DNA from: Bacillus rhizoplanae
GTDB lineage: Bacteria > Bacillota > Bacilli > Bacillales > Bacillaceae_G
Reading direction: 5' to 3'
DNA: 64,000 bases
NCBI RefSeq assembly: GCF_917563915.1
Contig: NZ_CAKJTI010000007.1
Span: 1 to 64,000 of the forward strand
A program made the translations under genes and the position numbers. Positions 1-64,000 of the stretch are shown here, one piece after another. Every line of letters begins with the position of its first letter. The first letter of the stretch is position 1. The notes beneath the pieces are model-generated. The model saw only the letters and a list, made by a program, of their open reading frames with translations, had not been told where the DNA came from and searched no databases.

Positions 1-540
1 ATGGAAAGTAGCCACATGCCAAACGTGATGCCGATGATGGAAAGTAGCCACATGCCAAATGTGATGCCGATGATGGAAAGTAGACACATGCCAAAAATGA
101 TGCCGATGATGGAAAGTAGGCACATGCCAAAAATGATGCCGATGATGGAAAGTAGCCACATGCCAAACGTGATGCCGATGATGGAAAGTAACCACATGCC
201 AAACTTGATGCCGATGATGGAAAGTAGGCACATGCCAAAAGTGATGCCGATGATGGAAAGTAGACACATGCCAAAATTGATGCCGATGATGGAAAGTAGC
301 CACATGCCAAACATGATGCCGATGATGGAAAGTAGCCACATGCCAAACATGATGCCGATGATGGAAAGTAGCCACATGCCAAATGTGATGCCGATGATGG
401 AAAGTAATCAAATGCCAAATATGATGCCAATGATGGAAAGTAATCAAATGCCAAATATGATGCCGATGATGGAAAGTAATCAAATGCCAAGTATGATGCC
501 GATGATGGAAAATAATCAAATGCCACCATTTGCACCAATG
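1..540 (+). repeat. 36-bp coding tandem repeat in exsA, 14 units plus a degenerate one
   Basis: In-frame 36-bp units each encode 12 residues of pattern ME-S-x-x-MP-x-x-MPM. Variable positions are S/R/N at residue 4, H/Q at 5, N/K/S at 8 and V/M/L at 9. The final unit (505-540) has decayed to MENNQMPPFAPM. Units with Arg-Lys pairs alternate with Ser-Asn units, so charge varies along the array. The array continues to the left window edge, so the total number is unknown. Confidence 0.95.
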
Positions 541-975
541 CCGTATCCATATCAACCATCATACCCACAACAGATGCCATATCAATCACCATATCCACAG
601 CAAATGATGCCAAGACCACATAATCAAATGCCATATCAACAAAACCCATACTACGGCATGCCAGCAATGCAAGGTATGCCGCCAATGCACGGCATGCCAC
701 CATATGATATGCAATACACTTCTATGCCAAATCCAAATGTCGCACCTATAACAATGGATAATAATGCACCGCCAATTGCGCCAATACAAGAGGATTGTGG
801 TTGTGATGATGAACCTAAATTGTATAGCCCGCAGCCAGGTATACCATATTTCCCACGTGAAACTTATCAGCAAAACCCATATATTCCGTATACACCGCAG
901 CCGGGTACAATGTATTATCCACCAAGTCCTCCTTCTATATTTGGTACACTATATCAGGAAGAAGAGGAAAATTAA
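1..975 (+). CDS. exsA: Spore coat/exosporium morphogenetic protein ExsA (SafA-like), C-terminal part
   Basis: Only the C-terminal 324 residues are in the window; the ATG at base 1 is an internal Met of a repeat, not the start. The visible part has fourteen 12-residue repeats of the type MESSHMPNVMPM plus one degenerate unit, then a Pro/Tyr/Gln/Met-rich stretch, a Cys pair in EDCGCDDE (about residues 262-269), and an acidic C-terminus. ExsA of B. cereus and SafA of B. subtilis are LysM-bearing proteins that anchor inner coat layers to the spore surface; the N-terminal LysM domain would lie upstream of the window. The location before bofC-ruvA matches safA in B. subtilis. The family call rests on composition and synteny, since the diagnostic domain is not visible. 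Confidence 0.8.
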   Translation: MESSHMPNVMPMMESSHMPNVMPMMESRHMPKMMPMMESRHMPKMMPMMESSHMPNVMPMMESNHMPNLMPMMESRHMPKVMPMMESRHMPKLMPMMESSHMPNMMPMMESSHMPNMMPMMESSHMPNVMPMMESNQMPNMMPMMESNQMPNMMPMMESNQMPSMMPMMENNQMPPFAPMPYPYQPSYPQQMPYQSPYPQQMMPRPHNQMPYQQNPYYGMPAMQGMPPMHGMPPYDMQYTSMPNPNVAPITMDNNAPPIAPIQEDCGCDDEPKLYSPQPGIPYFPRETYQQNPYIPYTPQPGTMYYPPSPPSIFGTLYQEEEEN

Positions 976-3085: not shown

Positions 3086-3204
3086 AGCGATGAGCTAATT
3101 TACGTAAGACGAGAGATATGCTTAAGTGCTAAACACGCGGATGTGGCCGCCTGGTCTCTCGCCGTAAAACGCATCAAGACGCCTGCATGACAGGCGTCTT
3201 TCTT
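3086..3204 (+). ncRNA. Candidate structured small RNA
   Basis: Downstream of a 17-bp-spaced promoter, CGAGAGA (about 3110-3116) can pair with TCTCTCG (about 3155-3161), enclosing a smaller GCGG/CCGC hairpin. A terminator hairpin, AGACGCCTG / CAGGCGTCT followed by T-rich sequence, closes the unit at about 3177-3204. Total length would be about 115-120 nt. It does not match the riboswitch cores I know (T-box, SAM, purine, lysine, preQ1, c-di-GMP). With no gene directly behind the terminator, a trans-acting RNA or an orphaned leader are both possible. Confidence 0.4.
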
Positions 3205-21859: not shown

Positions 21860-22147
21860 CAAATTCATTTTATTACAGTTACATATGGTATAAACCGATG
21901 ATAGAGAAGAGTAGATGAGAGACACATGAAAAGAGAGGAAATGTCCGGGGCTGAAAACATTTCTGCATGATGACTGATCGAATGACACTCTGTAGGTTTC
22001 GTCTTGAACAGTTTAGTGCTTAGTAGAGATCGAACGCAATTTAAGCGTTATTAAAAAAGTGGAAGCATACGTGCTTCAATTAGGGTGGCACCACGGGTAT
22101 TATACTCTCGTCCCTACTGTAGAATCAGTAGAGGCGGGAGTTTTTTT
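21860..22147 (+). promoter_or_regulatory. T-box riboswitch of hisS-aspS
   Basis: The leader carries the T-box core AGGGTGGCACCACGGG (22082-22097) that binds the acceptor end of uncharged tRNA, and a competing terminator in which CTCTCGTCCCTACTG pairs with CAGTAGAGGCGGGAG before seven T residues. Upstream stem I contains GAGACACATG, in which CAC could be the His specifier codon. Uncharged tRNA-His would stabilise the antiterminator and switch on hisS. Confidence 0.93.
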
Positions 22148-56955: not shown

Positions 56956-57117
56956 TCGAAAAATTGGCAAGAAAACTCCATCTTCAAAACGTGCAGGGCA
57001 TAGCCCAGTTTAAGGTGGAGATGAATTGCCAGAGCATTTGTAAAAATATTTTTGTAGTATGGCGAATATATGTTCTTTTTTGGTGTTTTGTAGTATCATA
57101 AAGGAAAGAAAGAGAAT

Positions 57118-58552
57118 ATGCAACCTATCAAATTTGGATCAAGAAAGGTCATAAGCTATACTCTTACCTCCTAGAAATGTGTCAAAATGCCAAAAACCTC
57201 TACAATACAACAAACTTCTATATTCGCCAAGTATATACGGCCTTACGTACTGAGAAACCATTACAGCCGCTTCAACAAGAAGTTCTTCATACATTACAAG
57301 CATATATTGAAATCATGAATGAAAATCAACTTCGCGCGTATCAAAAACGTGTACAAAAACAAAAAGAAAAGCCGGTAGAAGAACGGAAAGAAATCAAGTG
57401 TAATCTGTTTACGTTACCGACAAAAGAGAAATCATTCCTATCCTATAACTTTCTAGATTGTTTGTTTAAAGCAATGAAGCACCAAGACTATATAAACCTA
57501 CCATCACAAGTAAATCGAGCAGTTATGAGAAAGCTTTACCAAAACTGGGATTCATTTTTTGATTCCATGAAAAATACAAAAAACATCCTTTCACTTTTAC
57601 TGGCAGACCTCGCATTCCAAAATATATCAAATCATTTATGAGAGAAGTTGTATTCACGAATCAAGTATGTAAACTCCAAGTTAAATACATTCGTTTTCCA
57701 AAAACAAGCATAAAATTAAATATTGGTAAATTGTTTGGACAAATTAGTAATCTCAAAGAAGTACGCGTTTCTCCTGCTTACGGGAAGTTTAAAGTTGAAA
57801 TTGTGACAGAACAATCTGAGACAGCACCTGAGCATGTCGATAATAATCGCTATATGAGTATTGATTTAGGGATCAATACTCATATAGCGATTATCACAAC
57901 GAATACAGGGGCTACTCCTGTGTTAGTAAAGGGCAGTGTCATCAAAAGTATCAATCAATACTACAACAAACAAAAGGCTCATTTACTGGGGATTCTTCGT
58001 CATGGAAAAGAACCAAAAGAAGGACCACACACATCAAACCGCTTAGAGAGGCTTCATGAGAAACGGTTTCTCAAGATAAAAGATTTCTTTCACAAAATCA
58101 GTTACCACATTGTTCATTTCGCAGTTCAACATGAGATCTCTATGATTGTGATTGGGAAAAATACATCATGGAAACAAAACAGTGAGATGGGAAATCGACA
58201 GAATCAATCCTTTTGCCATATCCTACATAATTTACTCATTGAAATGATCATCTATAAAGCAAAACGAAAAGGTATTATTGTACAAGTCGTGGAAGAATCG
58301 TATACAAGCAAGGCATCCTTTCTAGACAATGATGTAATCCCAACTTACGGTGGGGAAGATATTCCTGAGTTCAGTGGGAAACGGATCAAACGTGGTTTGT
58401 ATCGTACGAAAGAGAATAAACTACTGAACGCAGATGTGAATGGTTCCTATAACATCTTAAAAAAGGCAGTTCCAAAGGCGCTTGCCGATGGAATAGAGGG
58501 GTTGTGCCATCAGGCAGCTGTGTCAACTCCACTCGTGTTAAGCATCTCTTGA
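57118..58552 (+). pseudogene. tnpB: tnpB (RNA-guided nuclease of IS605 type), two frameshifts
   Basis: Joining three frames restores a standard TnpB. After ATG 57118 the frame ATGCAACC seems to have lost one G from ATGGCAACC; in the restored frame it reads ATYQIWIKKGHKLYSYLLEM and continues to residue about 150. A second one-base loss near 57571 shifts SMK-YKKHPFTFTGRPRIPKY out of frame. The second half encodes the RuvC-like domain: MSIDLGINTHIAI with the first Asp, MIVIGKNTSWKQ where canonical TnpB has Glu, EESYTSKASFLDND, and LNADVNGSYNILKKA with the last Asp. No CxxC zinc ribbon is present. Two separate open frames (57177-57641 and 57638-58552) remain. Confidence 0.85.
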
Positions 58553-61433: not shown

Positions 61434-61742
61434 TTATCGTACAATTGCTTTTTCATTTTGCAAAAACATCTCATCAAACTGTTTTGCCATTTCAAAATCA
61501 AGTTTTGTCAAACCTTTTGCATTCCATGATGACAACGTAATAATAACAGCTTTATACTGGATAAGGATGAATGGATGGTGATTGCGTTCTTCTGATAGTT
61601 TGGCCGCTTCAGAAACAAATTCGACACCTTTTAAGTAGTCGGAGAACATGTATTTTCGTTCAATCCATTTTTCGTCTTTTATTGTCCATTTATCCAACTT
61701 CATTAACTCTTCTTGTACTTCTTCATTAGTTAGTCGCTGCAT
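61434..61742 (-). CDS. phhB: Pterin-4a-carbinolamine dehydratase
   Basis: PhhB dehydrates the 4a-hydroxy-pterin made by the hydroxylase so the cofactor can be recycled. The 102-residue protein has the active-site segment [23 protein letters not shown] (about 51-73) and [26 protein letters not shown]. Its start overlaps the end of phhA by 17 bp, so the two are translationally coupled. Confidence 0.93.
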
Positions 61743-63480
61743 TGTTTTTCACATCCTTTATTGGTAGTAAGGCAAGTCCGTTATTGATTAGACGCTGAAC
61801 CTCTTCATTATTTTTAAAGGAAGAAAGTTGTTGTAACAATGCTGCACGTTCTGGAATCTCCACTTTATGTTCTAGTAATAACTCTAAAATCTCAAGGCGT
61901 AGTAGCCATTCCTTTTCATAAAACTTATCTAATACGTGATGGATTGCTACAAGCTGTTCTATATTCTGTTCGTGTAATGAACCTTCGTTGCGAATATCAC
62001 GAACAGTTTCGTACATTTTTTCAAGCTCTGTTCGTGTGCGCGGTGTAGGTATTACTTCGTCTTCTTCTGCTACTGGAAAGAATGCTGCTGGATCTGCTGC
62101 ACCAGGGAAAACAGAAGGAATTGCTGAACCAACTGCCATATCAAATGTCCCCCACGCTGCATCAAATAATAAGCGATTTTTTAACGTGACTGTACAATTT
62201 GTAAATGAAATGACAGCGACTTTTTCCTTATTTCTAATAATATCAGTTACTGTTCCTATCACATGTACACCACTTGTAAAGGTAAGTTCAGTTTTGTTAC
62301 CAACAGAGATTCCTAATGTGTTTAATTCTTCATCTGTGCAAGATTCTAATGCGATATCATTTTGTAATAATCCAATTGGCGTACCAAACCCATCTTGGTG
62401 CACAGCTGTAGAATGATTTGGCAATTGTGTATGATTGATAGCTAATGCAGTTGGGCTACCTGTTTTTATATAAATAGCTTCGCCGCTTTCATTTTTTACT
62501 ACTTCAACTAGTGTTCCTGTAATTTGTAATCCGCTGTTTAAAGCAACTGTCGCTGTATTTTCAGAACGAAGAGCTTTATCTAAACCTTTTGTACCGCCTG
62601 ATTTGAATGCCATTGTTTCTGAGAATTTTTCAAGTGCTTCAATCAGTTCTTCGAAAGAGCCGCATACAAAAAGCTGTGGCTGCATTTTTGTTACATCGTA
62701 GCTTGTTTGAATACATGATTCAATAGAGAACGGTACTTTTTTGACAGCGTCAGTTAAACAATGTTTGCTTTCACCAACAGAGGAAAGAAGTCCAGCACCA
62801 TAAATTTTTGGATTTTGTATATCACCAATCAATCCGTATTCCACTGTCCACCAGAAAAGACGGGAAATTTGTTCTGCTTCTGATAGGCCAGAAACATGTT
62901 TTTGTTTTTCTTCCACTTCTTTTTCCGCAACAGTAATTTCTTCTGGAGTAGATGTGCGGCTTTCTTTTACAATCGTTAATTGACGAACCGCTTCAAATAA
63001 GTCGTGTTCTTCTTTTGTAGAGAAAGCTTTTGCTCCAATCTGTCCGAACAATTTTACATATTTTGCATATGTAGGATCGAGTAGAATTGGTGCGTGTCCA
63101 GCTGCTTCGTGAACAATGTCAGGAGCTGGTGTATATTCAATGTTTTCTACTTTACGAATATCTGTCGCAATTGGCAGGAGACCATGTCCTTGGAAATCAA
63201 AGAATGCTACGCCAGGAATTAATCCGTCAATTGTAACAGCCCCCCAACCGCTCGGTGCTAAACAATCGTTCATTTCTTCTACTTTTGGAATGGCATCTAT
63301 ATTAATACCGGAAGACTGCAATCCGTTTACATACGCTGGATGTGCAACGTCTTTTAAAAAGTTATGATTTTGTCTCATAATGTAGCGCCATACAGCGTGA
63401 TCAATTGGTGTGTAGTGGTCGTAATGCTGCTTTGATACATAAGGTTTTAAGTGCGATGGAATTTCTGCTGTTTTTGTCAT
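61726..63480 (-). CDS. phhA: Pterin-dependent aromatic amino acid hydroxylase, long form
   Basis: PhhA hydroxylates phenylalanine to tyrosine using tetrahydropterin and non-heme iron. The catalytic domain occupies about residues 10-260: [43 protein letters not shown] carries the two His ligands (HEAAGH) and [13 protein letters not shown] the Glu ligand. The protein is 584 residues, about twice the usual bacterial enzyme; the second half has beta-rich segments ([49 protein letters not shown]) and a helical tail. AAGGGGG precedes the ATG. It is followed by phhB and preceded by a T-box remnant. Confidence 0.9.
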
Positions 63481-63619
63481 ATAGATATATCCCCCTTTAT
63501 GTAAAAAATGCTATGTTCCGTTTTTTATGGGCATCGCTCCTTCCAAAATAATGTAAACGCTTCTAAAATTTTATCATAAAATTCCGAATTATTTAATATT
63601 TGTTTTTGCTGCAAATAAA

Positions 63620-63708
63620 AAAATTCCTATCGGAAAATACGATAGGGATGATAAAAATTGCGGTACCACCCTACTGGTAAACAAAAAATTGTTTACCATT
63701 CTCTTAAG
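63620..63708 (-). promoter_or_regulatory. T-box antiterminator/terminator of phhA, lacking stem I
   Basis: On the minus strand GGTAAACAATTTTTTGTTTACC forms stem III, followed by the T-box core AGGGTGGTACCGC and a terminator CCTATCG / CGATAGG plus seven T residues. Upstream, where stem I with the specifier loop should be, lies tnpB-derived sequence. Phe or Tyr would be the expected effector tRNA, from gene function. As it stands the leader cannot read an anticodon. Confidence 0.85.
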
Positions 63709-63891
63709 ATAACGGAAAGAAATCAAATGTAATCTGTTTGCATTATCGACAAAAAGGAAATCGTTTCTATCGTATAACTTCCTAGATTGTTTGTTTAAAA
63801 CAATGAAACAACAAGAATATATGAACTTACCGATGTAAACGAATCAAGCGGTTATGAAAAAACTCTATCAAAACTGGCAAGCATTTTAGAA
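63708..63891 (+). pseudogene. tnpB fragment
   Basis: Translated on the plus strand, the fragment gives ERKEIKCNLFALSTKRKSFL, then SYNFLDCLFKTMKQQEYMNL, a stop, and QAVMKKLYQNWQAF, colinear with residues about 78-140 of the TnpB at 57 kb (ERKEIKCNLFTLPTKEKSFL and so on). It has two stop codons and many substitutions, so it derives from a related but distinct copy. Both ends are abrupt, at the T-box stem III and at GCATTTTAGAAG. Confidence 0.85.
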
Positions 63892-63956
63892 GCGCACTTT
63901 GAATTGCAGAAAGTGAAAAGCTAAGAAAGAAGGTATAGAGGGTGCCTTCTTTTTAT
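63892..63956 (+). pseudogene. Orphan 3' gene end with terminator
   Basis: After the tnpB fragment, CACTTTGAATTG onward can be read as HFELQKVKS followed by TAA, then a hairpin AGAAGG / CCTTCT (63928-63950) with a T run that merges into the next repeat. It has the look of a gene tail plus terminator without the gene. The peptide is too short to identify. Confidence 0.35.
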
Positions 63957-64000
63957 CCCGCATTAACGGGCAGTAAGCCCCCCACCTCAAGATTCAGGGA
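63952..64000 (+). repeat. bcr1-like repeat, copy 8 (continues past the window)
   Basis: TTTATCCCGCATTAACGGGC starts at 63952 and is followed by the AGTAAG and CCCCCCACCTCAAGATTC blocks before the window ends. The TTTAT overlaps the T run of the preceding terminator. Confidence 0.85.

What the first reader, a model, noticed from the sequence alone, without database searches (positions are those of the whole stretch)
63620..63956. phhA T-box riboswitch beheaded by a tnpB fragment
The 3' half of a T-box (stem III, AGGGTGGTACCGC core, terminator) sits upstream of phhA on the minus strand, but directly at the foot of stem III the sequence turns into a degenerate tnpB fragment, then an orphan gene tail and a bcr1-like repeat. 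The tRNA-reading stem I is therefore missing. The hydroxylase operon should be locked in the terminated state, or be driven by a promoter supplied from the insertion, or have lost aminoacyl-tRNA control. It is a natural example of an aptamer cut from its expression platform by mobile DNA.
Basis: partly seen in the sequence, partly recalled or inferred. Interest (0 to 1): 0.75.

Follow-up and report, generated by a model that had tools for sequence, protein, structure and literature searches.

The report
Broken tRNA-sensing switch before phhA
Upstream of a bacterial phenylalanine-hydroxylase gene lies only the back half of an RNA switch that normally reads a tRNA, fused to a scrap of a mobile gene; the sensor looks dead, and the gene probably runs from its own nearby promoter instead.

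Summary
The core observation holds. On the minus strand upstream of phhA lies a T-box 3' half (63618-63717), next to a 177-bp tnpB fragment (63711-63887, 81% identical to 57382-57558 of this window). The join is 12 nt upstream of stem III, inside stem IIA/B, where both sequences read CCGTT. No stem I was found between there and the window end. Six of 30 phhA loci from elsewhere carry T-boxes, mostly in tandem, with a probable Tyr specifier. Compared with their 16 units and the hisS T-box of this window, the remnant has lost both central pairs of antiterminator helix A2 (kept in 17 of 17) and the AA after stem III. I read it as a tRNA-blind relic. 'Locked off' is not supported: the terminator is weak, and phhA has a proximal region with a cre-like site shared by four T-box-less relatives; promoter use there is inferred. 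B. cereus-group sister genomes were not found in the collections searched and the window ends at 64000, so prevalence, age and what lies upstream are open.

The parts
61726..63480 (-). phhA, phenylalanine hydroxylase (584 aa)
   Evidence: ORF; Pfam Biopterin_H, E 6.9e-32
61434..61742 (-). pterin-4a-carbinolamine dehydratase gene, overlapping the end of phhA
   Evidence: ORF; Pfam Pterin_4a, E 6.1e-27
63511..63534 (-). short uORF (MPIKNGT) behind a GGAAGGAG, upstream of phhA
   Evidence: read; not like the leader peptides of the six T-box relatives; no evidence of function
63551..63566 (-). cre-like site TTAGAAGCGTTTACAT
   Evidence: 14 of 16 to the B. cereus consensus, shuffle P 0.06 alone; 14 or 15 of 16 also in 4 of 4 T-box-less relatives and 11 to 13 in 25 other loci
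63568..63576 (-). extended -10-like TGATAAAAT, possible proximal promoter
   Evidence: read by eye; not listed by the promoter scan, which lists a different chance-level match at 63615-63588
63617..63646 (-). intrinsic terminator: 7-bp stem 63646-63626 and T-run
   Evidence: hairpin -7.6 kcal/mol
63660..63671 (-). T-box core GGGTGGTACCGC
   Evidence: exact, one in the window
63641..63673 (-). antiterminator region: A1 intact (5 of 5 pairs), A2 with its two central pairs broken
63675..63698 (-). stem III hairpin
   Evidence: inverted repeat; alignment
63708..63715 (-). CCGTTATC, 3' strand of stem IIA/B; its 5' partner is missing
   Evidence: alignment with 16 intact units
63711..63715 (.). five bases shared by T-box and tnpB at the join
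63711..63887 (+). internal tnpB fragment with in-frame stops
   Evidence: 144/177 to 57382-57558; the piece before the first stop matches annotated TnpB on two plasmids at 60%
63888..63947 (+). unassigned stretch with a possible terminator-like inverted repeat read by eye
   Evidence: no relative found for its reading frame in the fetched loci
63948..64000 (.). end of a dispersed repeat (bcr1-like by recall), cut by the window end

Best explanation
This is a vestigial T-box, probably tyrosine-specific. Relatives outside the B. cereus group carry intact Tyr-type T-boxes before phhA; here a join at a shared CCGTT placed a tnpB scrap where stem I, stem II and the 5' strand of stem IIA/B should be. 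What is left should not sense tRNA: the reading domain is gone, and the antiterminator's A2 helix and the stem III flank have changed at otherwise constant positions. Transcripts coming from upstream would meet a tRNA-blind, probably leaky terminator. phhA itself is most likely transcribed from a promoter between that terminator and the gene, possibly under catabolite control through the cre-like site. Shown: the anatomy, the join, the broken pairs, the shared cre-like site. Inferred: loss of tRNA response, leakiness, promoter use, CcpA binding, and the order of events.
For: T-box 3' half. tnpB homology and five-base overlap. No stem I in the window. A2 central pairs and the AA after stem III kept in 17 of 17 intact T-boxes, lost here. 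19 of 72 Neobacillus-invariant columns changed here against 1 or 2 in the three Hazenella units. Terminator state -13.0 kcal/mol against -18.9 to -27.4 in 16 units; closed hairpin within 0.9. cre-like site in the window and in 4 of 4 T-box-less relatives, not in 25 other loci; proximal region aligns with L002 better than all but 22 of 2000 shuffles. Intact hisS T-box in the same window as a control, 130.2 bits. [quoted passage not shown]
Against: A 2008 survey calls phhA T-box regulated in all B. cereus-group members (PMC2494555, section 18). No sister genome could be compared, so the A2 changes may be older than the join. By energy the open-bulge antiterminator is no more disfavoured here (5.0 kcal/mol above the terminator) than in relatives (5.8 to 12.8). 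Stem III pairing is kept and the terminator still forms. Promoter-like matches are at chance level; cre-like matches over the whole window too; the proximal region does not align above shuffles with L001, L025 or L034, and L025 and L034 are close kin. [quoted passage not shown]
Confidence: 0.7

Rival explanations
1. The remnant is the last unit of a tandem array. Intact T-boxes beyond 64000 still control phhA, and this unit is only a damaged final terminator.
For: Five of the six T-box-bearing relatives show two or three full units, and the sixth has one full unit plus one cut by its contig end.
Against: tnpB scrap, unassigned stretch and dispersed repeat lie between; intact units follow one another at about 280 nt in most arrays, though L006 carries a roughly 190-nt insert between two. 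Anything upstream would still meet this terminator.
Confidence: 0.12
2. phhA is driven by a promoter brought in with the tnpB scrap, reading through the weakened terminator.
For: One promoter-like match on the minus strand in the scrap, 63769-63742, 9 of 12; closed antiterminator-like hairpin within 0.9 kcal/mol of the terminator.
Against: Three promoter-like sites found in 63400-64000 against 1.9 expected; the scrap is an internal coding piece.
Confidence: 0.07
3. phhA is shut off: the remnant ends every transcript and there is no other promoter.
For: The terminator is the favoured fold, P 0.79.
Against: phhA and the dehydratase gene are open; gene-proximal cre-like region shared with T-box-less relatives.
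Confidence: 0.06

Closest known systems
T-box leader (RF00230), as found before phhA in Neobacillus and Hazenella
   Same: CCGTTATC, stem III, exact T-box bulge TGGTACC, A1 helix, overlapping terminator, position before phhA
   Different: No stem I or stem II detectable in the window, no 5' half of stem IIA/B, A2 central pairs broken, single unit seen, below the Rfam gathering score
Naturally short T-boxes of Actinobacteria (reduced stem I; PMC7583486, passages)
   Same: Less upstream sensing RNA than a standard T-box
   Different: Those keep a specifier and need stem II; here neither was found
TnpB of IS200/IS605-type elements
   Same: 81% DNA identity to a tnpB copy in the same window whose ORF matches Pfam OrfB_IS605 and Cas12f1-like_TNB
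   Different: About 59 internal codons with stops; no element end recognised

Membership tests
T-box riboswitch (RF00230) | Rfam gathering score | tested here: not met
   34.0 bits against 93; the 3' half alone of an intact relative gives 47.2
T-box riboswitch (RF00230) | Stem I with specifier | tested here: not met
   not found in 63716-64000; beyond 64000 not seen. The stem I model also misses the hisS T-box, so it speaks for the phhA type only
T-box riboswitch (RF00230) | Stem IIA/B pseudoknot | tested here: not met
   only the 3' strand CCGTTATC aligns
T-box riboswitch (RF00230) | T-box bulge UGGNACC and helix A1 | tested here: met
   TGGTACC, 5 of 5 A1 pairs
T-box riboswitch (RF00230) | Helix A2 | tested here: not met
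   two of five pairs broken, both central; those two are kept in 17 of 17 intact T-boxes
T-box riboswitch (RF00230) | RRRxG-stem III-AA motif | tested here: not met
   CA where 17 of 17 have AA; the 5' part was only read by eye and looks kept
T-box riboswitch (RF00230) | Terminator that competes with the antiterminator | tested here: met
   weaker than in the 16 units compared
T-box riboswitch (RF00230) | Response to uncharged tRNA | not testable with these tools
   needs transcription assays
TnpB | Homology to TnpB | tested here: met
TnpB | Intact gene with catalytic domain and element ends | tested here: not met
   177-bp internal piece with stops; element ends judged by eye only
bcr1 repeat | Match to the published bcr1 consensus | not tested
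   only copies within the window were compared
CcpA cre site | Match to WWGWAARCGWWWWCAW (PMC2358912, passages) | tested here: inconclusive
   14 of 16, shuffle P 0.06 alone; also in 4 of 4 T-box-less relatives

The most novel reading that the evidence does not exclude
The orphaned expression platform was not just left to decay but became a tRNA-independent attenuator: its altered A2 strand can pair with the UGGU of its own T-box bulge, so the former antiterminator folds alone and balances the weakened terminator within about 1 kcal/mol, setting a fixed read-through level while the proximal promoter takes over regulation.
Probability: 0.1. Interest if true: 0.6.

Novelty: new variant of a known kind. 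Interest (0 to 1): 0.38.

Why it matters
If true, it is a natural, base-resolved case of a T-box that lost its sensor and kept its expression platform, with sensor contacts broken and terminator and stem III pairing kept, in a gene that seems to have moved from amino-acid control to another promoter. It also warns that a T-box core found upstream of a gene does not prove tRNA control.

Tried and rejected
Sister B. cereus-group genomes: no own genome is held. No record so named is among the 30 phhA loci, and no match in the 19 genomes of the nearest family is closer than 64% protein identity. A phhA scan and two window patterns found no relative in viral contigs, and the leader had no match in plasmids. 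The order-wide phhA search (51 of 397 genomes with a match) was not followed into leaders.

The orphan gene tail found no convincing match in the fetched loci. Promoters in the inserted DNA are at chance level. The uORF before phhA was set beside the leader peptides of relatives by eye only. In one search the L034 row was read on the wrong strand; one search replaced it. The stem I model does not find the hisS T-box, so it tests the phhA type only.

Full report
What is there. Upstream of phhA (61726-63480 minus, Pfam Biopterin_H) and the overlapping dehydratase gene, the minus strand reads 5' to 3': end of a dispersed repeat (64000 to about 63948), about 60 unassigned bases, a tnpB scrap in antisense (63887-63711), CCGTTATC (63715-63708), stem III (63698-63675), the core GGGTGGTACCGC (63671-63660), a 7-bp terminator (63646-63626) with a T-run, an AT-rich stretch, and phhA.

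The T-box half is real. Rfam gives 34.0 bits, E 1e-4 over 9 kb and 4.7e-6 over 401 bases, below the gathering score of 93; 88 model positions of stem I are skipped, and the alignment threads tnpB sequence through stem II. The 3' half alone of an intact relative, L029, gives 47.2 bits; the intact hisS T-box of this window gives 130.2. A covariance model of 16 phhA T-box 3' halves scores the window element 34.5 bits, E 3.7e-5, and the hisS one 22.1. Against this, antisense strands of the relatives score up to 29.2 with the same model, because the hairpins are self-complementary; the exact core and Rfam carry more weight.

What an intact leader looks like. Of 30 phhA loci found, 6 carry the T-box core upstream. 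Rfam at gathering finds T-boxes in the same 6 of 20 loci scanned over two calls, one of the 20 being a second copy of L002. L003, L006, L028 and L029 have three full units each, L004 two, L005 one plus one cut by the contig end. In 15 of 15 full units AATCAGTACA is invariant; from its position (recalled layout of the specifier loop) TAC is taken as a tyrosine specifier. [quoted passage not shown] cereus group (PMC2494555, section 18 read).

The join. tnpB homology runs without gaps from 63711 to 63887, 144 of 177 identical. T-box homology starts at CCGTTATC. They overlap by CCGTT, 63711-63715, and 12 nt separate the tnpB homology from stem III. The tnpB piece is internal, and I recognised no element end by eye. 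A microhomology join would explain this; five shared bases can also occur by chance, and the order of events is inference.

No stem I. A stem I/II model from 15 intact phhA T-boxes finds those 15 at 164-196 bits and nothing in the window up to E 10. With filters off on 63400-64000, the best score inside 63716-64000 is 2.4 bits, and the best anywhere is 8.3 bits, around the phhA start. This model misses the hisS T-box, so it speaks only for the phhA type.

Decay of the sensor. In 17 of 17 comparison T-boxes (16 phhA units, 1 hisS) the second and third A2 pairs are C-G and G-C; here they are C.A and A.C. One intact unit, L029_T3, has a mismatch at the fifth pair. The AA between stem III and A1 is present in 17 of 17 and reads CA here; it belongs to the RRRxG-stem III-AA motif (PMC7583486, passages). 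Of 72 columns invariant in 13 Neobacillus rows the window changes 19, the three Hazenella rows 2, 2 and 1. One of the 19 lies on the tnpB side of the join, and several are compensated changes in stem III and the terminator. The window's lineage may also have started from a different T-box, so the A2 breaks weigh more than the total.

Folding. In 16 intact units the terminator state is -18.9 to -27.4 kcal/mol and the antiterminator 5.8 to 12.8 above it. In the window the terminator state is -13.0, an open-bulge antiterminator 5.0 above it, and a closed hairpin in which UGGU pairs with AUCA 0.9 above it; P(terminator) 0.79, P(A1) 0.18. The 5.0 is no worse than in relatives, so energy alone does not show a dead antiterminator; in that state no A2 helix forms. 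This is equilibrium folding of a short segment.

Where phhA may start. The window has about 140 nt between terminator and gene. Four relatives, L001, L002, L025 and L034, have phhA without a T-box by Rfam and by the 3'-half model up to E 10. Scoring 150 nt upstream of phhA against the published B. cereus cre consensus (PMC2358912, passages), the window and all four reach 14 or 15 of 16 on the sense strand; 25 other loci (6 with T-boxes, 19 without) reach 11 to 13 (L024 and L027 of the 30 were left out). Single-locus shuffle P (300 shuffles) is 0.007 to 0.087, and L025 and L034 are close kin, so the five are not independent. The local alignment to L002 is reached by 22 of 2000 shuffles; those to L001, L025 and L034 by 1439, 837 and 1764. 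Over the whole window cre-like matches are at chance level, 9 against 9.3 (with a recalled B. subtilis-type pattern). The promoter scan lists 3 sites in 63400-64000 against 1.9 expected: one minus-strand site in the tnpB scrap, one in the proximal region (63615-63588), one on the plus strand. TGATAAAAT at 63576-63568 was read by eye.

Reading. A dead T-box with a surviving, weaker terminator, and a gene that most likely depends on a proximal promoter.

Limits. No sister genome was available, so prevalence and age are unknown. Nothing beyond 64000 was seen. Whether a truncated T-box of this kind is in print was searched only through, whose listed titles and abstracts showed none; three T-box papers I wanted were not held. 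The tandem phhA T-boxes of the relatives were likewise not seen in those listings; a review says tandem T-boxes exist with modes of action unknown (PMC7583486, passages).

Noticed in passing
L003, L004, L005, L006, L028, L029 upstream of phhA: Two or three tandem, near-identical T-boxes with an invariant TAC at the presumed specifier before phhA (L005: one full plus one cut by the contig end).
   Followed up: partly
L003, L004, L005, L006, L028, L029 between the last terminator and phhA: A nine-residue leader peptide, M[KN]xRIR[LF]P[CY], with a ribosome-binding-like sequence in 6 of 6 T-box-bearing loci; the window has an unrelated short uORF there.
   Followed up: no
L006:3415-3610 and L004 after about 3690: Inserts inside phhA T-box arrays: a GC-rich stretch of about 190 nt between the second and third units of L006, and about 200 extra nt after the last unit of L004.
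   Followed up: no
window 57060-58552: The larger tnpB copy is itself interrupted: its first part and the 304-aa ORF at 57638-58552 lie in different frames.
   Followed up: no
window 57838-57894: A long, nearly perfect inverted repeat inside the tnpB reading frame, which drew chance matches to microRNA families.
   Followed up: no
window 21889-22118: Intact T-box, 130.2 bits, before genes that look like hisS and aspS (names by recall).
   Followed up: partly
window 3087-3198: BsrF small RNA, 119.3 bits.
   Followed up: no
window 1-648: Array of 36-bp tandem repeats at the start of the window.
   Followed up: no
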